Shown here one piece after another: positions 1 to 20,976 of a stretch of 41,655 bases of DNA. Every line of letters begins with the position of its first letter. Within the stretch, counting starts at the first letter, position 1. Made by a program: the position numbers and the translations under genes. This DNA is from a bacterium (GTDB lineage Bacteria > Pseudomonadota > Alphaproteobacteria > Rhizobiales > Aestuariivirgaceae), in contig JALHQC010000038.1 of assembly GCA_022842165.1 (NCBI GenBank), positions 1-41,655 on the forward strand. Direction: 5' to 3'. The notes under the pieces were generated by a model. That model was not told the DNA's origin and did no database searches. It saw only the letters and a program-made list of their open reading frames with translations.

Positions 1-3000
1 AACGCCGTGCTCCAGCGCGTCGTCCCGCGCGAGCTGATCGCCGAACACACCTTCACCGCCACGCCGGGCCACAGCGTCAACAGCGACAAGCTGATTGCCT
101 TCCTCAGCGAGAACGGCTTTTCCCGCACCGGCACCGTGGTGGACCCCGGCGATTTCGCCGTGCGCGGCGGCATCGTCGACATCTTCCCGCCGGGCTCCGA
201 TGCGCCCGTGCGCCTCGACTTCTTCGGCGACGCGCTGGAATCGATCCGCAGCTTCGATCCCGAATCCCAGCGCACGACGTCCACGTTGAAACGCTTCACG
301 CTGAACCCCGCCAACGAAGTGTTGCTGAACGAGGATTCGATAAACCGCTTCCGCAAGTCCTACGCGGAAGTTTTCGGCGGCATCGACATTTCCGACCCGC
401 TCTATGAAAGCGTCACCGCCGGCCGCCGCTATCAGGGCATGGAACACTGGCTGCCGCTGTTCCACGATCACTTGTCCACGCTGTTCGATTATCTCGAAGA
501 CCCCGTCATCACGCTGGACCATACGGCGGATGAAGCCGCCACAGCGCGGCAGGAGCAGATCCACGAATTCTACGACGCCCGCCGCGAAGCGCTGGAAAAG
601 AAGGAAACCTTCGGCGCGGCACCCTACAAGCCGGTGCGGCCTGAGACGATCTACCTGACGGCGGATAACTGGGCCGAGACTCAGTCCAACTACACGGTCT
701 TCGCCTTCTCCCCCTTCGAGAGTCCGGAATCTTCCGCTATATCCTTCGGCGGCAAGCGTGGCCGCAGCTTCGCCGCCGAACGCACGCAGCCCGCGGGCAA
801 TGTCTACGAGGCGGTGAAGACCCACGCCGACAACATCCGCCGCGGCGGCCGCCGCGTGGCGATTGCGACGTGGACGGAAGGCTCCCGCGAACGCCTCGAA
901 ACCATCCTCAAGGATCACGAACTCGCCCCGCTCGCCGCCGCGAAAAGCTGGATTGATTTCTTGTCGTGGGACAAGGCCGTCGCCGGCCTCATCGTGCTGG
1001 GCGTCGAGGAAGGCTTCGAGACGGACGATCTCGTCATCATCGCCGAGCAGGATATCCTGGGCGACCGTCTCGTCCGCCGTGGCCGCAAGACCAAGAAGGC
1101 CTCCGACTTCATCTCCGAACTCTCGGCCTTGACACCGGGCGATCTTGTCGTCCACGTCGATCACGGCATCGGCCGCTTCGAGGGCTTGAAGACTATCGAG
1201 GTGCAAGGCGCACCGCATGACTGCCTGTTCCTCACTTACTCCGGCGGCGACCGGCTGTTCCTCCCCGTTGAGAACATCGAACTTCTCTCGCGCTACGGTT
1301 CCGACGAGCAGGGCGCCAATCTGGACAAGCTGGGCGGCGGCGCCTGGCAGGCCAAGAAAGCAAAGCTTAAAGAGCGCATCCTCAGGATCGCGGAGAACCT
1401 CATCCGCACCGCAGCGGCGCGCGAGCTGAAGCCGGGCGATGTCTTGCCCCCGCCCGAAGGCGCCTACGAGGAATTCAACGCGCGCTTTCCTTATGAGGAA
1501 ACCGAGGACCAGCTCTCGGCAATAGATGCCGTCATCGAAGACCTGCAGAAGGGCCGCCCGATGGACCGCCTCGTCTGCGGCGACGTCGGCTTCGGCAAGA
1601 CGGAAGTCGCACTCCGCTCCGCCTTCGTCGCCGCCATGAACGGCAAGCAGGTGGCCGTCGTCGTTCCAACCACGCTGCTGTCGCGCCAGCACTTCGCCAC
1701 CTTCCAGGCGCGCTTCAAGGGTCTGCCGATCAACATCGCGCAGGCCTCCCGCATGGTGCCGAAGAAGGAGCTGGACGAGACGAAGAAGGGCCTCGCCGAT
1801 GGCTCCGTCGATATCGTCGTCGGCACCCACGCATTGCTGTCGGGCTCGATCAAGTTCCGCGATCTGGGGCTCTTGATCATCGACGAGGAGCAGCACTTCG
1901 GCGTCAAGCACAAGGAACGGCTGAAGGAACTCCGCGCCAACGTGCATGTCTTGACGCTCACCGCCACGCCCATCCCGCGCACGCTGCAGCTGGCCTTGTC
2001 GGGTGTGCGCGAATTGTCCCTCATCACCACGCCGCCGCTCGATCGTCTGGCGGTCCGCACCTACATCTCGCCGTTCGATCCCGTCATCATCCGCGAAAGC
2101 CTGCTGCGCGAGCATTTCCGCGGCGGCCAGAGCTTCTATGTCGTCCCGCGCGTAACGGACCTTGACGAGATCGCCGCCTTCCTGCGCGAGAACGTGCCGG
2201 AGGTAAAATTCCGCGCCGCGCACGGCCGCCTTGCCCCCACCGAACTCGAAGACATCATGACCGGCTTCTACGACCGCACCTTCGATGTGCTGCTCTCCAC
2301 CACAATCGTCGAGTCCGGCCTCGATATCTCAACCGCCAACACGCTCATCATCCACCGGGCGGATATGTTCGGCCTGGCGCAACTCTATCAGCTGCGCGGC
2401 CGCGTGGGCCGGTCGAAGCAGCGGGCCTACGCGCTCTTCACCACGCCCGCCAACCGCACGCTCACAGCGGCAGCGGAAAAGCGCCTCAAGGTTCTGCAGT
2501 CGCTCGATTCACTGGGCGCAGGCTTCACGCTGGCCAGCCATGATCTGGACTTGCGCGGTGCAGGCAACCTGCTGGGCGATGAGCAATCTGGCCACATCAA
2601 GGAAGTGGGCTACGAACTCTACCAGCAGATGATCGAGGAAGCCGTCTCGAAGCTCCGCACCGGCGAGGAAACACTCGACAGCGACGGCCAGTGGTCGCCG
2701 CAGATCAATGTCGGCACCTCCGTGCTGATCCCCGAATCCTATGTGGAAGACCTGCAGGTGCGATTGGGCCTCTACCGCCGCCTCGCCGACCTGCACGAGC
2801 AGAAGGACGTCGACGGCTTTGGCGCCGAACTCCACGACCGCTTCGGCCGCCCACCGGAAGAAGTGCGCCACCTGCTGGAGATCGTCTCGATCAAGCTCCT
2901 GTGCCGTGTGGCGAATGTGGAAAGCGTCGACGCCGGCCCCAAGGGTGCGGTCATGAAATTCCGCGGCGACGCCTTCTCGAACCCCGGCGCGCTGGTGCAG

Positions 3001-3138
3001 TGGATTTCAGGGCAGGGCGCACAAGCCAAGCTCCGCCCCGACATGAAACTCGTCATCATGCGCAACTGGGACAAGCCCGAGGAGCGGTTGAAGGGCACAA
3101 GGCAGCTGATGCAGACGCTGGTGAAGCTGGCGGCGTGA
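1..3138 (+). CDS. mfd: Transcription-repair coupling factor Mfd, 5' end missing
   Basis: Mfd is an ATP-driven translocase that removes RNA polymerase stalled at DNA lesions and recruits UvrA. The reading frame is open from base 1, so the GTG at 7 is internal. About 1045 residues are present against a usual 1150 or so, meaning roughly the first 110 are outside the window. Visible in order are the UvrB-like N-terminal module (VRGGIVDIFPPG), the RNA polymerase interaction domain (VVHVDHGIGRFEG), and the RecG-like motor with Walker A GDVGFGKT, box II DEEQHFG, motif III TATPIPRT, motif V STTIVESGLDI and motif VI QLRGRVGR. The C-terminal D7 region ends in MQTLVKLAA. The 3' end is special: two degenerate copies of its tail lie downstream at 4811-4848 and 5240-5374. 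Confidence 0.97.
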   Translation, partial: NAVLQRVVPRELIAEHTFTATPGHSVNSDKLIAFLSENGFSRTGTVVDPGDFAVRGGIVDIFPPGSDAPVRLDFFGDALESIRSFDPESQRTTSTLKRFTLNPANEVLLNEDSINRFRKSYAEVFGGIDISDPLYESVTAGRRYQGMEHWLPLFHDHLSTLFDYLEDPVITLDHTADEAATARQEQIHEFYDARREALEKKETFGAAPYKPVRPETIYLTADNWAETQSNYTVFAFSPFESPESSAISFGGKRGRSFAAERTQPAGNVYEAVKTHADNIRRGGRRVAIATWTEGSRERLETILKDHELAPLAAAKSWIDFLSWDKAVAGLIVLGVEEGFETDDLVIIAEQDILGDRLVRRGRKTKKASDFISELSALTPGDLVVHVDHGIGRFEGLKTIEVQGAPHDCLFLTYSGGDRLFLPVENIELLSRYGSDEQGANLDKLGGGAWQAKKAKLKERILRIAENLIRTAAARELKPGDVLPPPEGAYEEFNARFPYEETEDQLSAIDAVIEDLQKGRPMDRLVCGDVGFGKTEVALRSAFVAAMNGKQVAVVVPTTLLSRQHFATFQARFKGLPINIAQASRMVPKKELDETKKGLADGSVDIVVGTHALLSGSIKFRDLGLLIIDEEQHFGVKHKERLKELRANVHVLTLTATPIPRTLQLALSGVRELSLITTPPLDRLAVRTYISPFDPVIIRESLLREHFRGGQSFYVVPRVTDLDEIAAFLRENVPEVKFRAAHGRLAPTELEDIMTGFYDRTFDVLLSTTIVESGLDISTANTLIIHRADMFGLAQLYQLRGRVGRSKQRAYALFTTPANRTLTAAAEKRLKVLQSLDSLGAGFTLASHDLDLRGAGNLLGDEQSGHIKEVGYELYQQMIEEAVSKLRTGEETLDSDGQWSPQINVGTSVLIPESYVEDLQVRLGLYRRLADLHEQKDVDGFGAELHDRFGRPPEEVRHLLEIVSIKLLCRVANVESVDAGPKGAVMKFRGDAFSNPGALVQWISGQGAQAKLRPDMKLVIMRNWDKPEERLKGTRQLMQTLVKLAA

Positions 3139-3158
3139 CCTTCTCACCTCGCCAACAA

Positions 3159-3258
3159 CTGTCATCCCCGCACTTGTTGCGGGGACCCATTCATCCACAC
3201 GCGTGAACGCCCAACTTCGCGGCATAATGGGTCGCCGGAACAAGTCTGTCGATGACAG
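3159..3258. repeat. Palindromic intergenic repeat, family 1, copy A
   Basis: A repeat of about 100 bp bounded by an 8-bp terminal inverted repeat, CTGTCATC at 3159 and GATGACAG ending at 3258. An inner hairpin, CCCCGC/GCGGGG-like, lies near its left end. Copies B (4867-4965) and C (5118-5216) share the same layout, including ACCCATTCATCCACA and ATGGGTCG blocks. It starts 20 bp after the mfd stop and may also act as a transcription end for mfd. Such repeats are commonly scattered through rhizobial genomes. Confidence 0.85.
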
Positions 3259-3350
3259 CAAGAACCAACATCCACCCATCTCCCTCATGCTGGCGTGCCC
3301 GCAGAATTTTGGGCTTGGCAAGCGAAAGGTTTCTACGCATAAATTCTAAC

Positions 3351-3508
3351 GCAGCGGCGGTCTTTGGATAGCTCGATGCAGCAATGCAGAGAGTTGGGCG
3401 GGGCATCCCCGCCTGCGACTTTAACCCGGCCATACAAGGCGTTACCCCCGCTGGGTTTCACCCAGGTGCGGTAACGCGAGACGAAGATGAGCAAAGACCG
3501 TCCGCTGC
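3351..3508 (+). ncRNA. Retron msr-msd non-coding RNA
   Basis: Predicted template and primer RNA of the retron whose reverse transcriptase follows at once. The outer arms pair: a1 at 3351-3366 (GCAGCGGCGGTCTTTG) with a2 at 3492-3508 (CAAAGACCGTCCGCTGC), with one bulged T at 3501. Just inside a1 comes ATAGC, whose G at 3371 fits the conserved branching guanosine. The msr part has a TGCA-GCAA-TGCA hairpin (3377-3388) and a 7-bp stem GGCGGGG/CCCCGCC (3397-3413). The msd part has a long hairpin with outer stem GCGTTACC (3439-3446) paired to GGTAACGC (3470-3477) and inner stem CTGGG/CCCAG (3451-3465). Position, arm pairing and hairpin order match known retrons. The exact reverse-transcribed DNA ends cannot be read from sequence alone. 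Confidence 0.85.
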
Positions 3509-4819
3509 ATGCCGGTTGTCCCGATGAATGAATGGAACCTTGCGCGGAATCTTGCGCAGAGCCTCGCGTCGGGGCCATGGTCGAAACACTTCATCCGGCA
3601 GACGCTGAGCCGCAGGCTCCCCGCACAGCTTCACCATCTGGTTGATAAGATGACCGTGGCGCTGCTCAGGAGCCTTCCTTTCGGATATTCCCCGGATCCC
3701 GGCGTCGTCGCCACTGCCTTGGTCGGGCTTGCGAGGTTCCAGGCGATCCACGCCTTTTGCCTGAAGCATGATATCTGGCCCAACCCCGATCTGTCGCCGC
3801 CGCAGATGGCTCCGGTTGCGGCCTTCGTAAAGCTCGATGTGCCGCCGCTTCCAACACTCGATGCGCTCGCCCAATGGCTGTTCCTGCCTGTCGAGCGGAT
3901 GGAATATCTTGCAGACGTGGCAGCGCGATACGAAGCTCATGAAGATGCCGCGGTGAATCACTACCACTATATCCTGCAGCCCAAGAAATCCGGCGGTCTG
4001 AGGATGATTGAAGCGCCAAAGCCTCATCTGAAGGCGGCGCAGCGGCAAATCCTGCATGGCATTCTCGACAAGGTTCCAGTCCACAACAACGCCTTTGGAT
4101 TTGTAAAGGGACGAAACTGCCTGAATGCTGCTGCTCGTCACGCAGGAGAGCAGGCCGTCGTCTGTTTTGACCTGAAGGATTTCTTTGCCTCGATAGGGTC
4201 GGCCCGTGTGTTCGGCCTTTTTCGTTGCCTTGGTTATCCTCATGCGGTGGCAAGAGTTCTGACAGGGCTATGCACGTCACTCACACCATGGTGGATACTG
4301 AACCAGCTGGAAGTTGCCGACAGGCACAATTTTCGCAAATTGCATTTGCCCCAAGGATCACCGGCATCACCATCGCTTGCCAATCTTGCGGTTTTTGCGA
4401 TGGACCGGCGACTGTCAGGTCTGGCGAAGAGCCTGAACCTCAACTACAGCCGATATGCCGACGATCTCAGTTTCTCCGGAGACAGGGAAAGCATCGGGTG
4501 CCTTCTTCGCACTGTACCAGAGATAGTTGCCGATGAAGGCTTTCAGCTGAATCCAGCGAAGACCCGCATCATGTCGAACACCTCCCGGCAGGTGGTGACG
4601 GGTGTCGTGGTCAATCAGCATCTCAATGTGGACCGCAGGGAATATGACCGCGTCAAGGCCATCATTCACGCCTGCGGGAAGCCGCATGACACGCGGCTGG
4701 GCGATCCCCGCTTCCGCGCTGCCTTGCTTGGCAAGATCGGGTGGATCGAGGCAGTCAACCGCCACAAGGGCCAGAAGCTACTGCAGATGCTCTCGGATGT
4801 GGCGGCAGGCAGCAGGTGA
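3509..4819 (+). CDS. Retron-type reverse transcriptase
   Basis: Reverse transcriptase that would copy the msd part of the ncRNA at 3351-3508 into branched or free RT-DNA; retrons act in anti-phage defence. Motifs, numbered from the ATG at 3509: motif A DLKDFF (221-226), QGSPASP (282-288), catalytic YADD (316-319) and the retron hallmark VTGVVVN (363-369). The protein is 436 residues, longer than the usual 320 or so, because of a roughly 110-residue helical N-terminal extension before the core that begins near PTLDALAQWL. An in-frame ATG at 3524 (MNEWNLAR) is an equally good start, since the ATG at 3509 abuts arm a2; neither has a strong ribosome site. No separate effector gene lies between the flanking repeats. 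The last codons and the stop lie inside a duplicated mfd tail. Confidence 0.92.
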   Translation: MPVVPMNEWNLARNLAQSLASGPWSKHFIRQTLSRRLPAQLHHLVDKMTVALLRSLPFGYSPDPGVVATALVGLARFQAIHAFCLKHDIWPNPDLSPPQMAPVAAFVKLDVPPLPTLDALAQWLFLPVERMEYLADVAARYEAHEDAAVNHYHYILQPKKSGGLRMIEAPKPHLKAAQRQILHGILDKVPVHNNAFGFVKGRNCLNAAARHAGEQAVVCFDLKDFFASIGSARVFGLFRCLGYPHAVARVLTGLCTSLTPWWILNQLEVADRHNFRKLHLPQGSPASPSLANLAVFAMDRRLSGLAKSLNLNYSRYADDLSFSGDRESIGCLLRTVPEIVADEGFQLNPAKTRIMSNTSRQVVTGVVVNQHLNVDRREYDRVKAIIHACGKPHDTRLGDPRFRAALLGKIGWIEAVNRHKGQKLLQMLSDVAAGSR

Positions 4820-4848
4820 CACAAACGCTGGTGAAACTGGCGGCGTGA
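4811..4848 (+). pseudogene. Short duplicate of the mfd 3' tail (copy 2)
   Basis: These 38 bases align without gaps to mfd 3101-3138 with six mismatches. Read in the mfd frame they end in TQTLVKLAA and stop, against MQTLVKLAA in the real gene. The same spacer-then-repeat arrangement follows, with family 1 repeat copy B starting 18 bp after the stop as copy A does after mfd. The stop codon of the reverse transcriptase (4817-4819) lies in this remnant, so the retron appears to have joined an mfd tail at about 4810. Confidence 0.85.
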
Positions 4849-4866
4849 TCCACCCTCCCTAACCAA

Positions 4867-4965
4867 CTGTCATCCCCGCGCTTGTCGCGGGGACCCATTC
4901 ATCCACAAGCGCGATCTTGGAACATTCGGCACAATGGGTCGCCGGAACAGGTCCGGCGATGACAC
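4867..4965. repeat. Palindromic intergenic repeat, family 1, copy B
   Basis: Second copy of the roughly 100-bp element: CTGTCATCCCCGCG at the left, GGCGATGACAC at the right, and an inner CCCCGCG/CGCGGGG hairpin (4875-4892). With the mfd tail before it, it forms a direct repeat of the mfd tail plus copy A unit, so the retron is bracketed by two such units. Confidence 0.85.
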
Positions 4966-5001
4966 ACAGGGGCGGTTCTTTTCAATTCATCCGCACACCA
5001 C

Positions 5002-5106
5002 CCTCATGCTGAGGTGCTCCGCCATAGGCGGAGCCTCAAAGCACCAGCCGCGCGCGCTGAAACAGACCCTTCGAGGCTCTGCTTTGCAGAGCACCTCAGG
5101 GCGAGG
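5002..5106. repeat. Palindromic intergenic repeat, family 2
   Basis: A second repeat type, running from CCTCATGCTGAGGTGCTC at 5002 to the inverse GAGCACCTCAGGGCGAGG ending at 5106. GAGCCTCAAAG and CTTCGAGGCTC form inner arms. It lies between family 1 copies B and C. With the other elements it fills 4849-5391, where I see no gene. Confidence 0.75.
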
Positions 5107-5117
5107 CTCACCTTTGG

Positions 5118-5216
5118 CTGTCTTCCCCGCGCTTGTCGCGGGGACCCATTCATCCACACGCGCGATCTTGGAACATTCGGCACAATGGGTCGTCGGAACA
5201 AGTCCGGCGATGACAA
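5118..5216. repeat. Palindromic intergenic repeat, family 1, copy C
   Basis: Third copy of the family 1 element, starting CTGTCTTCCCCGCG and ending GGCGATGACAA. It is closer to copy B than to copy A (shared GCGATCTTGGAACATTCGGC block). It is followed 23 bp later by the longest mfd tail remnant. Confidence 0.85.
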
Positions 5217-5239
5217 CAAGATAGGCGTTGGTACGGCCA

Positions 5240-5374
5240 ATTTCAGGGCAGGGCATCAACGTCAAGCTCCGCGCCGACTTGAAGCTCGTCGCAATGCGCA
5301 ACTGGGATAAACCTCTAGAACGCCTGAAGGTCAACCGTCGTCCAATGTATACACAGCTGAAACTGTTGAATCAG
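5240..5374 (+). pseudogene. Longer remnant of the mfd 3' end (copy 3)
   Basis: Translates in one open frame to a segment collinear with the last 44 codons of mfd (3004-3138). Shared blocks include ISGQG, KLR-D-KLV, MRNWDKP and ERLK, and the remnant ends near KLLNQ with the mfd stop lost. It has no upstream mfd sequence and no start of its own. The divergence from the resident mfd end looks greater than a fresh duplication would show, which suggests an old, displaced or foreign mfd end. It stops 17 bp before the TIR gene's stop codon. Confidence 0.88.
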
Positions 5375-5391
5375 ATGATGATTGCGTCCTG

Positions 5392-6552
5392 CTATCGAGC
5401 AAGTGTTTCAATCACTCTTCTGAATTTGTCGGTTACCATGGGTTCTATAAATCGCCATGGTACACGAACCTCATGGGAACCAAACACAAATGGAAGCACA
5501 TCATAGGGCGAAAAATTGAAGGTCATGCCTTTGTCATCACAGTTAAACTGGGACAATAACTTCCAGACATCTTCGGGGGTTTCTTTATAATCCCCAAAGA
5601 AGTCATTTCCAGAGACTTCACCTTCGAACTCAGCAACGATCACGTTTTCGCAGTAGCTAAGCAATTTCTGTGCATTCTCAATCGAATATCCTAGCACCGT
5701 CTCTATACTCAAGGAGCCCGTTTGTTCGCCGAAAAAGTTTAGTGATCTGATGTAGTGGTTAGGATGAGCAGCGCCAGAATAATTGATAAAGAAGTAAAAT
5801 CGAATAGAAACAATGTCGTTTGATCGATAGAATTCTTCTGTGGTTGCAGACCACTCGTGCTTCCAAACTCCGAACTCGGTGACGAATTGAGGATCTCTCT
5901 CAGGAAGAGGATCGAAATCAATGCGGGTCGAGAAGTAACTTTCTAAGACCATAGCAACAATAGCGCTATTCAAATACGACCAGTATAGTCCGACGTCTGG
6001 ATACTTCAGGTATTCACCGCGGCATTCATAAATCGGGGTTACTCCCTCAAATTCAACTTTCTGAATCCCCTCCGACAGGGCTTCTGCACGAACGATGGAG
6101 TCAGAAGGTTCTGTGAGTGCTGGAGGCATCGGGTCTTGTGTCGGCGCGGGATGCAACTGAGCTCGACGCCTCTCAACACCGTCATGAAGCCTCGCCTGCC
6201 AGTCATTAGCGAAGTCAAAATACTGAAATCGAGTTAGTTCGACTGGCATCTTTATGTCATCCAGTCGAATAGCTATGAGGTAAAGAGACCCCAGCGGTTG
6301 ATCATCAACCAATCTCAAAGATTGGCGAATTTCCCGATTCACTACACCTGGACGATTCATTATCTCGTTAGAGCATAGATGAACGACCAACTCGGCCTGT
6401 TGCTGACCTCGAAGGCGCTCTTGATCCCATTCGACGCCTGCTACAAGCGAAACTTTGTCAAACCAGACTTGATCTCCTAGTCCCTTCAGGAACTCATAAA
6501 CTACCCATGCCGTCCTTTCGTGCTCAGAGGGATAGCCCAGAAAAATCTTCAT
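5392..6552 (-). CDS. TIR domain protein with C-terminal RsiV-like (DUF3298) domain
   Basis: A 386-residue protein starting at the ATG at 6552 (MKIFLGYPSEHE); the upstream GTG at 6567 would add only five residues. Residues 1-115 look like a TIR domain: KIFLGYPSE as the first strand, then FDKVSLVAG, VVHLCSNE and VNREIRQS, where E74 is the likely catalytic glutamate of an NAD-cleaving TIR. A linker rich in P and T follows (about 133-155). Residues 165-380 resemble the RsiV ectodomain: a PdaC/DUF4163-like part around YPDVGLYWSYLNSAIV, then DUF3298 with NYSGAAHPNHY (257-267) and MTFNFSPYDVLPFVFGSHEV. No signal peptide or membrane segment is seen, so the protein should be cytoplasmic. The gene is clearly AT-richer than its neighbours, which suggests transfer. 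Defence function is inferred from the TIR domain and island setting. Confidence 0.82.
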   Translation of the reverse strand: MKIFLGYPSEHERTAWVVYEFLKGLGDQVWFDKVSLVAGVEWDQERLRGQQQAELVVHLCSNEIMNRPGVVNREIRQSLRLVDDQPLGSLYLIAIRLDDIKMPVELTRFQYFDFANDWQARLHDGVERRRAQLHPAPTQDPMPPALTEPSDSIVRAEALSEGIQKVEFEGVTPIYECRGEYLKYPDVGLYWSYLNSAIVAMVLESYFSTRIDFDPLPERDPQFVTEFGVWKHEWSATTEEFYRSNDIVSIRFYFFINYSGAAHPNHYIRSLNFFGEQTGSLSIETVLGYSIENAQKLLSYCENVIVAEFEGEVSGNDFFGDYKETPEDVWKLLSQFNCDDKGMTFNFSPYDVLPFVFGSHEVRVPWRFIEPMVTDKFRRVIETLAR

Positions 6553-6743
6553 TGCTCGTCGTACCACAAATAGACGTTGAAATCGTTGTGAGTAACTAAG
6601 AGAAAGTGGGACTTAGACGTAGTATGCATCTGTAGGAGAGACGTAACCAATATTGACACGGTGCTTATAATAAACCAAGGGAGACTTTAGAAGTTGATGC
6701 TTCCGGGCGATGTGCGATCTGCTGCGGTGCTTCTACAGAACAG

Positions 6744-7388
6744 CTACTCCGCCAACTCCTTCACCACACGCCCAATCGCATCCGCCAGCACCTCCGGTGA
6801 TTGCGCGCCCACCAGCGCGTAGCTCTGGCCGAGGATGAAGGTCGGAACACCCGTCACGCCGATGTCGGTGGAGTGCTGGATTTCGGTCTTCACCTCTTCC
6901 ACGTCCTGCTCGCTCGCCAGAAGCTCGGCGATTTGCGCCGCGTTGATGCCGGTTTCGCCGGCGCATTTCGCCAGCACCTGATGGTCGCTCACGTCGAGGC
7001 CTTCCGCCCAATAGGCCATGAACAGGCGCTCGGCCATGTCGTGCTGGCGCTCGATCGTATGCGACCAGCGGATGAGGCGATGCGCATCCAGCGTGTTGGG
7101 GGTGCGGGTGATGGCATCGAAGTTGAAGGGAACGCCAAGCTCGGCCCCGGCCGCGATCAGCGGATCGTGGATGGTCTTCACCCGCTCAGGCCCGAACTTC
7201 GCCGTCAGGTATTGGGTGCGGTCCAAACCTGCCGGCGGAATGGTCGGGTCCAGCATGAAGGGCCGCCAGCGCACGAAGAACTCGACGCCGTCCACCATTG
7301 ACAGCGCCTTGTCGAGGCGGCGCTTGCCGAGAAAGCACCAGGGGCAGATGACGTCCGACACGACGTCAATGACAAAACGATCCGTCAT
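6744..7388 (-). CDS. FrnE/DsbA-family thiol oxidoreductase
   Basis: A 214-residue thioredoxin-fold protein of the DsbA/FrnE group. The active-site motif is CPWC at residues 15-18 (VVSDVICPWCFLGKRRL), followed by the helical insertion domain. The cis-proline loop is GVTGVPTFIL. It has no signal peptide, so it acts in the cytoplasm; FrnE relatives assist redox handling or stress resistance. The start at 7388 is chosen because GAGGA precedes it at a suitable distance; the in-frame start at 7418 lacks this. It is transcribed alone or after the binding protein gene 135 bp upstream. Its stop sits at the edge of the AT-rich island. Confidence 0.9.
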   Translation of the reverse strand: MTDRFVIDVVSDVICPWCFLGKRRLDKALSMVDGVEFFVRWRPFMLDPTIPPAGLDRTQYLTAKFGPERVKTIHDPLIAAGAELGVPFNFDAITRTPNTLDAHRLIRWSHTIERQHDMAERLFMAYWAEGLDVSDHQVLAKCAGETGINAAQIAELLASEQDVEEVKTEIQHSTDIGVTGVPTFILGQSYALVGAQSPEVLADAIGRVVKELAE

Positions 7389-18527: not shown

Positions 18528-19694
18528 TTATTCGGGCAATCCAGATTTGTCGAGCAGGTCTCGATAAAGACGTGTCTCACCACTTGTTCCGGGGGGGTAG
18601 TTGTCGGTCGTGAACGATCCATCTGGCAGGTCAATTTTCGACATTAATGCTTCAAAGTGTTCTTTAGGAACTAGATTAGGCCTTACATCATAACTGAGAA
18701 CTGCCGGCCTCATGAATCTCATGAATGCAAGATAGCCGTTCGTCCGGACCAGAATATTGCCCGTTCCGCGATCAGCCCATGACTTGGGCCACTTGTCTTT
18801 AACAGCTTTGAAATAGTTCAGAATGTTAAGAAAAATCTTGTCATCTTCGCCTTTTACAAACGAGTACCTGAAAATAAAACGATACTCGTCACCAGATTTG
18901 AACGCCCACTCCCGTTGCCGTTTGCCTATTTCCCGGTCTACCAAAACATCTTTTGTTATGTGAGAAAGGATTCCTCTTACAACGGTTGCCTGGGACAAAG
19001 TCTCGCCTATACGCCCAGAAGTCGCCACTCCTAACCGCTTGATCAACTGATGAAACGGACTGTCATGTCGACGATCCAGTAGCACTGTAATCTCGTGCGC
19101 TGACTTTTCTGGACTCCGGGTCTTAGCCATTGAAAACAAGTCGTAAACAAGGCTTTTGTTAACTTTTGTTTGGGCTAAATTAACAGTGGAAAATATTTCG
19201 GCCTGTGTCGCTATGTCTGCACCGACAAAAATAGCAACATTCAATTCGAATGTTTGAGCGCAACCATTTTCGAACGCCTTGATGCGATGTTGACCGTCCA
19301 GAACTTTAGCGATGTCTCGGTACAGAATGTCATTGTTAGCGTCATCTTTGTCCAAATAATTCGAAAGAGTGATAACTCCCATGCGAGGGTCTGCAGCTAG
19401 TGGTGCGAATGCACAGCACCTTTCATCCACTGCTATTATGGCGGCTGTTGGAAATGTAGCGTCTTGAGTCGTGATATAGTGCTTGATCTCCGATAGCCTC
19501 TTTGGGTTGACTTCACGTTGGATACCCAAAAATTCATCTATGCCTTCGGATTGGCTCATTTTGCGGATGTCAAACTTGCAGATCTCGTAAAGCGCCAAGG
19601 CGGGAATTGAGCATATGAAGAACTTGCCGACCGGTTGCTCCAGTTGGATCGCAGGCAGAGTAACATTGCGCGGAGACTCGCGAAACTCAAGCAC
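18528..19694 (-). CDS. DGQHR-domain protein (DndB-like)
   Basis: A 388-residue protein carrying DGQHR at residues 133-137 in VLDGQHRIKAFENG, followed by FSTVNLAQTKVNKSLVYDLF and a later TNGYLAFMRF block near 320. DGQHR proteins include DndB, the regulator of DNA phosphorothioation, and ParB/sulfiredoxin-like members of other DNA modification clusters. It is translated from a start that overlaps the membrane protein's stop by 8 bp and is the third gene of the MT-A70 module. The gene is AT-rich compared with parE. Its role in DNA modification or defence is inferred from motif and neighbours. Confidence 0.85.
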   Translation of the reverse strand: MLEFRESPRNVTLPAIQLEQPVGKFFICSIPALALYEICKFDIRKMSQSEGIDEFLGIQREVNPKRLSEIKHYITTQDATFPTAAIIAVDERCCAFAPLAADPRMGVITLSNYLDKDDANNDILYRDIAKVLDGQHRIKAFENGCAQTFELNVAIFVGADIATQAEIFSTVNLAQTKVNKSLVYDLFSMAKTRSPEKSAHEITVLLDRRHDSPFHQLIKRLGVATSGRIGETLSQATVVRGILSHITKDVLVDREIGKRQREWAFKSGDEYRFIFRYSFVKGEDDKIFLNILNYFKAVKDKWPKSWADRGTGNILVRTNGYLAFMRFMRPAVLSYDVRPNLVPKEHFEALMSKIDLPDGSFTTDNYPPGTSGETRLYRDLLDKSGLPE

Positions 19695-20346: not shown

Positions 20347-20976
20347 TCAACCGGAACGACGATATGTCGCCCAAGTGGGGGTATAGTCTGTGTCTGCTTG
20401 ATTGCCCCATAGTGTCCAACCCTGTTTGGCGCCTCGCGCAAACAACTCTAGATATGGTCCCCGTGAGCAAGCTTCGATCAATTGATATTGCTCGTCTGGC
20501 TTTCGTGAGTGTTCTCGCTTCTTTGTCTGCATCATGTTAACTTGACTGCGACCTGGCTCAAGTGTGCGTGCTTTTTTACCTCGGGTGCCGAATAGCAAAA
20601 CTTCCGTAACATTGCGGAAGTAAAAACCTACGCCGCGTCCGTCCGAACCTCCGTCTTTCCGGATCTTGTGCCAGACGATGTTGCTCTTGTAGTTGAAGCC
20701 CCACGCCTTCATGACTTCTAGACCGTCTGGCAGCAACGCGTTTGGCACCCATAGATACAAGTGAGCGGGTTCTGCAGCCAAATGCGAAACTGGCAGCCCG
20801 CAAATCTCAGCAAGGCGCATGGTGGGATAACGATTTAATCGCCGATGTTCTGGAGCGATCTTCCCTGTTCGGTTTGCAAACTGCCACGGCGGATCAGCGA
20901 GGATCGTTCCAAATTTCCTTCCCGCAACCGTTGCTTGAAGGTCGTCGTGGGTCGATTGAAGAGTTGAAATGAGCAT
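20347..20976 (-). CDS. MT-A70 family adenine methyltransferase
   Basis: A 209-residue SAM-dependent methyltransferase. The catalytic DPPW motif is at residues 28-31 (TILADPPWQF). It is followed by LYLWVPNALLPDG, MKAWGFNYKSNIVWHK, GVGFYFRNVTEVLLFGTRG and KPDEQYQLIEACS, the order found in MT-A70 enzymes that make N6-methyladenine in DNA or RNA. It is the first gene of a minus-strand, AT-rich three-gene module. No restriction endonuclease is adjacent. An exact GAAC-N7-GAAC LexA-type box lies 63-77 bp upstream of its start. Confidence 0.92.
   Translation of the reverse strand: MLISTLQSTHDDLQATVAGRKFGTILADPPWQFANRTGKIAPEHRRLNRYPTMRLAEICGLPVSHLAAEPAHLYLWVPNALLPDGLEVMKAWGFNYKSNIVWHKIRKDGGSDGRGVGFYFRNVTEVLLFGTRGKKARTLEPGRSQVNMMQTKKREHSRKPDEQYQLIEACSRGPYLELFARGAKQGWTLWGNQADTDYTPTWATYRRSG

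What the first reader, a model, noticed from the sequence alone, without database searches (positions are those of the whole stretch)
5392..6552. TIR domain fused to an RsiV-like lysozyme-sensor domain
The C-terminal half carries DUF3298 hallmarks such as YSGAAHPNHY and FSPYDVLPF, the fold that in Bacillus RsiV binds lysozyme directly. Here it is cytoplasmic and joined to a TIR domain with a candidate catalytic glutamate (E74). One attractive reading is a defence protein that detects a phage lysis enzyme or another protein inside the cell and then depletes NAD. I know of no described system with this pairing.
Basis: partly seen in the sequence, partly recalled or inferred. Interest (0 to 1): 0.78.

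Follow-up and report, generated by a model that had tools for sequence, protein, structure and literature searches.

The report
Mobile TIR protein with lysozyme-receptor-like fold
A small mobile gene in soil and plant-associated bacteria joins a likely NAD-destroying immune domain to a fold best known from a bacterial lysozyme receptor, which looks like a one-gene anti-phage alarm, although what sets it off is unknown and lysozyme itself is not the likely answer.

Summary
The 386-aa minus-strand ORF matches TIR_2 and DUF3298 above Pfam cut-offs. A model of its C-terminal half (pLDDT 77) matches, below E 0.001, only DUF4163/DUF3298-type structures, RsiV among them. Ten distinct loci carry this architecture; the nine with a known or placed host are Hyphomicrobiales. 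E74 is invariant in all ten and aligns with residue 77 of a SPARTA TIR chain.

The gene looks mobile. Here it lies in a 3.6-kb insertion between mfd and a dsbA-like gene, which are 6-121 bp apart in three congeners. Elsewhere it sits beside phage or GTA genes (4 of 10) or on plasmids near recombinases (2 of 10). No neighbour is common to the ten in the flanks held, so a one-gene defence is likely.

The lysozyme reading is weaker. RsiV's S169 and Y261 are P264 and V356 here, and a related-fold protein was reported not to bind lysozyme (PMC5014341). In its favour, the loops matching RsiV's binding loops are the best-conserved C-terminal segments, and some secreted relatives carry an LprI domain. 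NADase activity and defence are inferred.

The parts
5392..6552 (-). TIR-DUF4163/DUF3298 protein gene, 386 aa, ATG at 6552, stop at 5392-5394
   Evidence: full-length relatives
6148..6552 (-). TIR domain, residues 1-135
   Evidence: Pfam TIR_2 3.1e-12; closest solved TIRs are SPARTA TIR chains (8qlo, 1.7e-9 with a family profile; Foldseek 8qlp 6.1e-6)
6331..6333 (-). codon of E74, candidate catalytic glutamate
   Evidence: invariant in 10 of 10 family members; aligns with residue 77 of the chain in 8u7b/8ifk by count; E77A is the catalytic mutant of Maribacter SPARTA (PMC10474274 passages)
6067..6147 (-). variable linker, residues 136-162
   Evidence: mean majority-residue fraction 0.26 against 0.63 (TIR) and 0.56 (C-terminal half) over 10 members
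5395..6066 (-). DUF4163 (PdaC-like) + DUF3298 half, residues 163-386, proposed sensor
5749..5781 (-). GAAHPNH loop, residues 258-268, equivalent of the RsiV lysozyme loop 163-171
   Evidence: mean conservation 0.79; RsiV S169 aligns with P264
5479..5517 (-). SPYDVLPFVFG loop, residues 346-358, equivalent of RsiV 251-263
   Evidence: mean conservation 0.81; RsiV Y255 = Y350, P259 = P354, Y261 = V356
3139..6743 (.). 3605-bp insertion between mfd and the dsbA-like gene that holds this gene and a reverse transcriptase gene
   Evidence: mfd and the dsbA-like gene are 57, 6 and 121 bp apart in congeners L046, L047 and L048; G+C is 42-50% in the 400-base windows over the TIR gene against 61-68% at 2000-3199 and from 6800 on

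Best explanation
It is a horizontally moving, single-gene anti-phage (superinfection-exclusion or abortive-infection) protein. The C-terminal DUF4163-DUF3298 half, related to secreted envelope proteins but here without a signal peptide or membrane anchor, acts as a cytoplasmic receptor. When it binds a ligand that appears on infection, most likely a phage protein, at the conserved saddle formed by the GAAHPNH and SPYDVLP loops, the N-terminal TIR domains cluster, E74 hydrolyses NAD+, and the cell stops growing before phage are released. Shown here: the two domains, the invariant catalytic-position Glu, the predicted fold of the C-terminal half, conservation of the two saddle loops, signs of mobility, and the absence of a partner gene common to the loci. 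Inferred: NADase activity, clustering on ligand, identity of the ligand, and the anti-phage phenotype.
For: TIR most similar among solved proteins to SPARTA NADase TIRs, with the catalytic Glu aligned. Receptor-type fold. Ten distinct loci; in an all-against-all blastp of ORFs in the flanks held (8-12 kb a side for most; 5.4 kb on one side of the window gene and 1.5 kb on one side of L018) the only shared neighbour of mobile type is a holin in L014 and L023, so no common partner effector was found. Four of 10 lie beside phage or GTA genes: terminase, portal and adaptor plus DUF6107 in L013, holin in L014, a tape-measure-like gene in L016 whose stretch is identical to an IMG/VR contig (L022), holin and tail fibre in the IMG/VR contig L023. 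Two of 10 are on Rhizobiaceae plasmids near an integrase or recombinase, with HEPN and GIY-YIG genes (L002) or DarT and methyltransferase genes (L003). Low-G+C insertion in the window. Rare: 4 of 397 genomes of the order had the architecture. SpbK shows that a single TIR protein can be switched on directly by a phage protein (PMC12847820: abstract, introduction and one results section).
Against: No activity or phage data. The saddle is conserved rather than variable, unlike what one might expect of a fast-evolving phage sensor, and the same motif is common to secreted DUF3298 proteins, so it may be structural. No member was found among 50,697 deposited phage genomes with three family queries. 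In four of 10 loci (window, L015, L017, L018) no phage or recombinase gene was identified beside the gene, though these flanks were not annotated exhaustively. The C-terminal half is less conserved than the TIR in 36 of 45 pairs, so the signal of sensor diversification is modest. The five models of the C-terminal half ranged from mean pLDDT 50 to 77.
Confidence: 0.58

Rival explanations
1. One reading: the DUF3298 half recognises a phage lysozyme or endolysin (or a tail-tip lysozyme) in the cytoplasm and thereby switches on the TIR. This is a special case of the best explanation.
For: RsiV fold match (5jen_A, E 3.0e-7); the two RsiV-type binding loops are the best-conserved of the C-terminal segments I defined; Y255, which contacts the lysozyme active site in RsiV, is Y350 and Tyr in all members; five secreted alphaproteobacterial proteins, chosen for scanning because LprI was visible by eye, carry LprI, and four of the five pass the DUF3298 cut-off; 2 of 10 genes lie within 3 kb of a phage holin.
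Against: RsiV S169, Q166, S168, T171 and Y261 are not kept; generic DUF3298 proteins share the GAH and PY motifs; Rv1980c does not bind lysozyme (PMC5014341); prophages that carry the gene beside their own lysis genes would trigger it on induction unless it is selective.
Confidence: 0.12
2. The TIR makes a signalling nucleotide (Thoeris ThsB-like) that activates an effector encoded elsewhere in the genome.
For: Several bacterial TIRs are signal producers (PMC12847820 introduction).
Against: No neighbour common to the 10 loci; PADLOC gives no Thoeris model for the protein at E up to 1. The genomes were not searched for distant effectors.
Confidence: 0.1
3. It is the effector of the retron-like reverse transcriptase encoded convergently 572 bp away.
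For: Both lie in the same insertion; the RT has a strongly structured stretch just upstream (z -4.38); TIR effectors occur in retrons (PADLOC RT-TIR_XII).
Against: None of the other 9 family loci encodes a relative of this RT in the flanks held, and none of 11 RT relatives in 10 other genomes has the TIR gene in the roughly 1.5 kb held on each side (0.5 kb upstream for L059); the genes are convergent and separated by mfd-tail and palindromic repeats.
Confidence: 0.05
4. It is not a defence gene but an enzyme or adaptor acting in envelope stress or host interaction.
For: The DUF3298 half is related to envelope proteins; some bacterial TIRs act on eukaryotic hosts (recalled).
Against: No signal peptide or membrane segment seen; patchy distribution, location on phage-like and plasmid elements, low-G+C insertion.
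Confidence: 0.1

Closest known systems
SpbK (Bacillus subtilis ICEBs1 TIR defence protein, activated by the portal protein YonE)
   Same: single protein, mobile element, TIR plus a fused recognition domain, no second effector evident
   Different: SpbK's recognition domain is N-terminal and helical and its trigger is known; here it is C-terminal DUF4163/DUF3298 and the trigger is unknown; NADase activity is shown for SpbK and inferred here
SPARTA TIR-APAZ/short Ago
   Same: closest solved TIR domains by sequence and by fold, catalytic Glu aligned
   Different: no APAZ domain found, no Argonaute neighbour; the PADLOC Aga_TIR-PNTD models match only residues 14-124 or 22-124
RsiV, anti-sigma factor and lysozyme receptor
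   Same: DUF4163 + DUF3298 fold; two conserved loops at the equivalent of the lysozyme-binding saddle
   Different: no transmembrane part; S169, Q166, S168 and Y261 not kept; fused to TIR
Secreted LprI-DUF3298 proteins of Alphaproteobacteria
   Same: among the nearest non-TIR relatives of the C-terminal half found in the order and class scans, GGAH-type loop
   Different: signal-like N terminus by eye and an LprI domain in place of TIR
Retron type XII RT-TIR
   Same: TIR associated with a reverse transcriptase
   Different: there RT and TIR are one protein (PADLOC 'single gene') or adjacent genes in one direction (L071); here they are separate convergent genes not linked elsewhere

Membership tests
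TIR-domain NADase | TIR profile match above curated cut-off | tested here: met
   TIR_2 47.5 bits against 28; 4 of 4 relatives scanned also above
TIR-domain NADase | catalytic Glu in the conserved helix | tested here: met
   E74 invariant 10 of 10, aligned with residue 77 by count in a SPARTA TIR chain
TIR-domain NADase | NAD+ cleavage dependent on TIR clustering | not testable with these tools
   needs enzyme assay
DUF4163/DUF3298 fold family | profile and fold match | tested here: met
   DUF3298 26.4 bits against 24.1, PdaC/DUF4163 below its cut-off; Foldseek 3cyg 8.6e-10, 3s5t 2.1e-9, 4e72 8.4e-8, 5jen 3.0e-7
RsiV lysozyme receptor | lysozyme-contact residues S169, P259, Y261 | tested here: not met
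   P264, P354, V356; S169 and Y261 kept in 0 of 10 members, P259 in 7 of 10
RsiV lysozyme receptor | transmembrane anti-sigma factor | tested here: not met
   no hydrophobic segment (highest 19-residue mean 1.09); TIR at the N terminus
RsiV lysozyme receptor | binds lysozyme | not testable with these tools
   needs ITC or pull-down
Standalone TIR defence protein (SpbK-like) | single gene with fused recognition domain and no partner | tested here: met
   no neighbour common to the 10 loci in the flanks held
Standalone TIR defence protein (SpbK-like) | phage protection triggered by a phage protein | not testable with these tools
   needs phage challenge
SPARTA | APAZ domain and short Ago in operon | tested here: not met
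   PADLOC Aga_TIR-PNTD models match only the TIR part, residues 14-124 (PNTD as the APAZ part is recalled); C-terminal half is DUF3298; flanking genes are mfd, RT and a dsbA-like gene
Thoeris | ThsA effector beside the TIR gene | tested here: not met
   flanking genes are RT and a dsbA-like gene and no neighbour is common to the loci; rest of the genome not searched
Retron effector (type XII or other) | conserved link to a retron RT | tested here: not met
   0 of 9 other TIR-DUF3298 loci with this RT in the flanks held, 0 of 11 RT relatives with the TIR gene within about 1.5 kb

The most novel reading that the evidence does not exclude
A cell-wall-enzyme receptor fold has been captured into the cytoplasm and wired to a TIR NADase, so that the conserved saddle which in RsiV blocks lysozyme here recognises a lysozyme-fold part of an invading phage (endolysin or tail-tip lysozyme) with different contact residues and triggers NAD+ loss before lysis.
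Probability: 0.12. Interest if true: 0.85.

Novelty: new variant of a known kind. Interest (0 to 1): 0.6.

Why it matters
Few fused recognition modules of bacterial TIR proteins have a known trigger (from general knowledge; SpbK is one). DUF4163/DUF3298 has one member with a solved protein ligand (RsiV with lysozyme) and only 11 papers in the searched library mention either domain (listing). A family in which this fold appears to control a TIR makes the question of what DUF3298 recognises directly testable by phage escape mutants, and would add a new sensor class to single-gene TIR immunity.

Tried and rejected
Retron-effector reading: attractive because of the adjacent RT with a structured upstream stretch, set aside because neither gene is linked to the other elsewhere in what was held. 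Antisense ORF 3458-4243: no Pfam family, not pursued. Rfam scan of 3000-7000: three matches, all far below gathering scores. NCBIfam: no family for the protein at E up to 1. Single-sequence scans of genome contigs and viral contigs found no relative; the alignment-based scans did. Two more viral scans returned only loci already known. Class and phylum scans (385 and 398 genomes) gave only the window's own copy of the fusion; the other hits, read by eye, were DUF3298 proteins with signal-like or anchor-like N termini, or TIR proteins without DUF3298. The full-length AlphaFold2 model was poor beyond the TIR (mean pLDDT 54); a second job on the C-terminal half with 11 sequences gave one good model, although the five differed (mean pLDDT 50-77). 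No match to the family in 50,697 phage records with three queries. I considered whether variable C-terminal loops point to an arms race: 214-236 and 309-328 are variable (0.38, 0.47), but the saddle loops are conserved, so this is not claimed. No paper on a TIR protein sensing endolysin was found in one search of four terms (two papers, seen in listing only).

Full report
The observation. The ORF at 5392-6552 is on the minus strand and encodes 386 residues from the ATG at 6552. Pfam finds TIR_2 over residues 3-121 (3.1e-12) and DUF3298 over 314-366 (26.4 bits, cut-off 24.1), with a sub-threshold PdaC/DUF4163 match just before it. The DUF3298 match of this one sequence is thin, so I tested it three other ways. 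Four relatives scanned singly all pass the DUF3298 cut-off, at 28.7-45.7 bits. A profile of six C-terminal halves finds the DUF3298 structures 3cyg (1.4e-11) and 3s5t (9.7e-10) by sequence. An AlphaFold2 model of residues 151-386 (pLDDT 77.4, pTM 0.74; the best of five that ranged from 50 to 77) has six Foldseek hits below 0.001, namely 3cyg (two chains), 3s5t, 4e72 and RsiV 5jen (two chains). The architecture is therefore TIR, variable linker (136-162), DUF4163-DUF3298.

The family. Full-length relatives were found in plasmids (2), in an even sample of the order (10 of 397 genomes with any match at E 1e-5, of which 4, the window's included, have the TIR-DUF3298 architecture on reading the ORFs), in GTDB contigs (9 loci, of which 6 are the fusion and 3 are DUF3298 proteins without TIR) and in IMG/VR (2 loci). 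After merging the same locus seen by different tools (identity of stretches checked) there are 10: window; L002 Agrobacterium tumefaciens plasmid; L003 Rhizobium leguminosarum plasmid; L013 Mesorhizobium sp. LHD-90; L014 uncultured Rhizobiaceae; L015 (=L004) Methyloceanibacter methanicus; L016 (=L022) Fulvimarina manganoxydans; L017 (=L005) and L018 (=L006) Hyphomicrobiales MAGs; L023 (=L055, L057) a viral contig without a named host. The named hosts are Hyphomicrobiales, and the window's genome is in the same order as L015. Identity to the window protein: L013 61, L014 60, L016 53, L004 53, L023 40, L002 41, L003 38, L005 32, L006 20%. Class (385, C-terminal profile) and phylum (398, full profile, E 1e-10) samples held only the window's own copy. 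The GTDB scan used one peptide pattern, so absence outside the order is not proved.

Catalytic site. In the ten-member alignment F4, Y7, D32, G39, W42, G69, E74, L79, R96 and D113 are the TIR-half invariants. The best solved relatives of the TIR are SPARTA TIR chains (8qlo 1.7e-9; Foldseek 8qlp 6.1e-6 with the full-length model, whose TIR part is its most confident part). E74 aligns with residue 77 of the chain in 8u7b/8ifk by counting on the printed alignment. In Maribacter SPARTA E77A is used as the catalytic mutant (PMC10474274, passages only); that the two 77s are the same site is an inference from the same chain offset (profile 2 to residue 4). NADase activity is inferred.

Is it a lysozyme sensor? 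In RsiV two loops reach into the lysozyme active site. S169W alone raises the Kd above 50 uM and the S169W P259A Y261A triple mutant nearly loses binding, while P259A or Y261A alone bind like wild type; residues 163-171 and 255-261 make many of the contacts (PMC5014341, passages). I aligned the RsiV fragment printed by HMMER with the family and three other DUF3298 structures. RsiV T165-T171 falls on G260-H266: Q166 is A or G, S168 is H in all ten, S169 is P in all ten, T171 is H in all ten. In the second loop Y255 is Y in all ten, P259 is P in 7 of 10, and Y261 is V or A in all ten. The family has the generic DUF3298 loops (G-x-A-H, and Y with a later P/Y), shared with 3cyg, 3s5t and 4e72, and not RsiV's. 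The same paper found that Rv1980c, of related fold, does not bind lysozyme. This counts against a simple RsiV-type lysozyme sensor. Two facts count for a ligand of that class. First, these two loops are the best-conserved of the C-terminal segments I defined (0.79 and 0.81 against a mean of 0.56); this could also be structural. Second, DUF3298 proteins with signal-like N termini that turned up in the scans include LprI-DUF3298 fusions: of 8 non-TIR proteins scanned 5 have LprI above cut-off, but these five were put in because LprI was visible by eye, and one of them (L027) has DUF3298 only below its cut-off (17.7 against 24.1), as does L026 without LprI (23.5). LprI is described as first reported in a lipoprotein conferring lysozyme resistance (PMC7933661, abstract start in listing).

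Mobility and partners. Eight regions of relatives around this locus were fetched (L046-L053). In three congeners mfd is followed after 57 bp (L046), 6 bp (L047) and 121 bp (L048) by the dsbA-like gene; in the window 3605 bp separate them. In L050 another insert of about 5 kb lies there; in L049 and L051 no dsbA-like hit was found between mfd and the next gene; in L052 and L053 no mfd hit was in the piece. The window's insert holds a reverse transcriptase gene (3509-4819) and the TIR gene, with partial copies of the mfd 3' end at 4812-4848 and 5225-5365. G+C is 42-50% in the windows over the TIR gene against 61-68% at 2000-3199 and from 6800 on. Four of ten family loci lie beside phage or GTA genes: L013 beside terminase, portal, head-tail adaptor and DUF6107; L014 beside a holin; L016 near a tape-measure-like gene on a stretch that IMG/VR lists as viral; L023 on a viral contig with holin, tail fibre, replication and ParA genes. 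DUF6107 as a mark of gene transfer agents is recalled. Two lie on plasmids near an integrase or recombinase with other likely defence genes. For the other four no phage or recombinase gene was identified beside them, apart from the insertion shown for the window. An all-against-all blastp of ORFs from the ten loci gives, besides the TIR-DUF3298 gene itself and seven pairs of antisense ORFs lying over it, only a holin shared by L014 and L023 and a weak pair of catabolic dioxygenases on L002 and L003. The gene appears to travel alone.

Not a retron effector. The RT belongs with retron-type RTs (PADLOC RT_other 430.7 bits) and has a strongly structured stretch directly upstream (3300-3508, z -4.38); two related RTs have structured upstream stretches too (L060 z -2.73; L059 z -4.01). 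But no relative of this RT lies in the other nine TIR-DUF3298 loci, and no TIR-DUF3298 gene lies within about 1.5 kb of 11 RT relatives from 10 other genomes. The flanks held are limited, so loose association is not excluded.

Mechanism. The closest working model is SpbK, a single TIR protein on a mobile element whose fused domain binds a phage portal protein, which clusters the TIRs and starts NAD+ hydrolysis (PMC12847820: abstract, introduction and the section on YonE read). By analogy the DUF4163-DUF3298 half is the receptor and the TIR the killer. I hold this at 0.58; the trigger is unknown, and a lysozyme-fold trigger is put at 0.12.

Literature. No paper in the searched library (PMC open-licence texts to 5 Aug 2026) holds both 'TIR domain' and 'DUF3298'. 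Eleven hold DUF3298 or DUF4163; judged by title, and for PMC5014341 by passages, none describes a defence system. Most subscription papers are not in the library and supplements were not searched, so the pairing may be listed elsewhere; NCBI already annotates two members as 'TIR domain-containing protein'.

Verdict.

Noticed in passing
window 3351-3508 and 3509-4819 (+): A retron-like reverse transcriptase (PADLOC RT_other, 430.7 bits) with a strongly folding stretch directly upstream whose two ends pair (GCAGCGGCGGTCTTTG with CAAAGACCGTCCGCTGC), like a retron msr-msd. Relatives in L059 and L060 also have structured upstream stretches and no evident effector gene in the short flanks held.
   Followed up: partly
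window 2989-3138, 4812-4848, 5225-5365: Repeated partial copies of the mfd 3' end bracket the RT part of the insert, as if elements had integrated at the mfd terminus. In a relative (L050) the same mfd-dsbA gap holds about 5 kb with a phosphoketolase-like and two cytochrome bd-like genes (named by eye).
   Followed up: partly
window 3159-3258, 4867-4964, 5118-5215: Three copies of a roughly 100-nt palindromic intergenic element (TGTCATCCCCGC...), REP-like, in the insert.
   Followed up: no
window 18528-19694 (-) and 20347-20976 (-): A DndB-domain protein (5.1e-13) near an MT-A70 methyltransferase (1.9e-27), possibly another small mobile or defence segment.
   Followed up: no
L007, L025, L027, L028, L029: Proteins of Alphaproteobacteria with signal-like N termini that join LprI (lysozyme inhibitor family) to DUF3298 (below cut-off in L027), hinting that DUF3298 may often act on cell-wall enzymes.
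   Followed up: partly
L013 1302-9191: The TIR-DUF3298 gene lies just upstream of, and divergent from, a terminase-portal-DUF6107 cluster that looks like a gene transfer agent (DUF6107 link recalled).
   Followed up: no
L009 553-2721 (-): Another genome of the order encodes a TIR domain joined to what looks like a SIR2-type domain in one open frame, two NAD-directed domains in one protein (by eye).
   Followed up: no
L002 10362-19571: The Agrobacterium plasmid copy sits in a likely defence island: HEPN protein, GIY-YIG nuclease, and an ATPase plus S8 peptidase pair.
   Followed up: no
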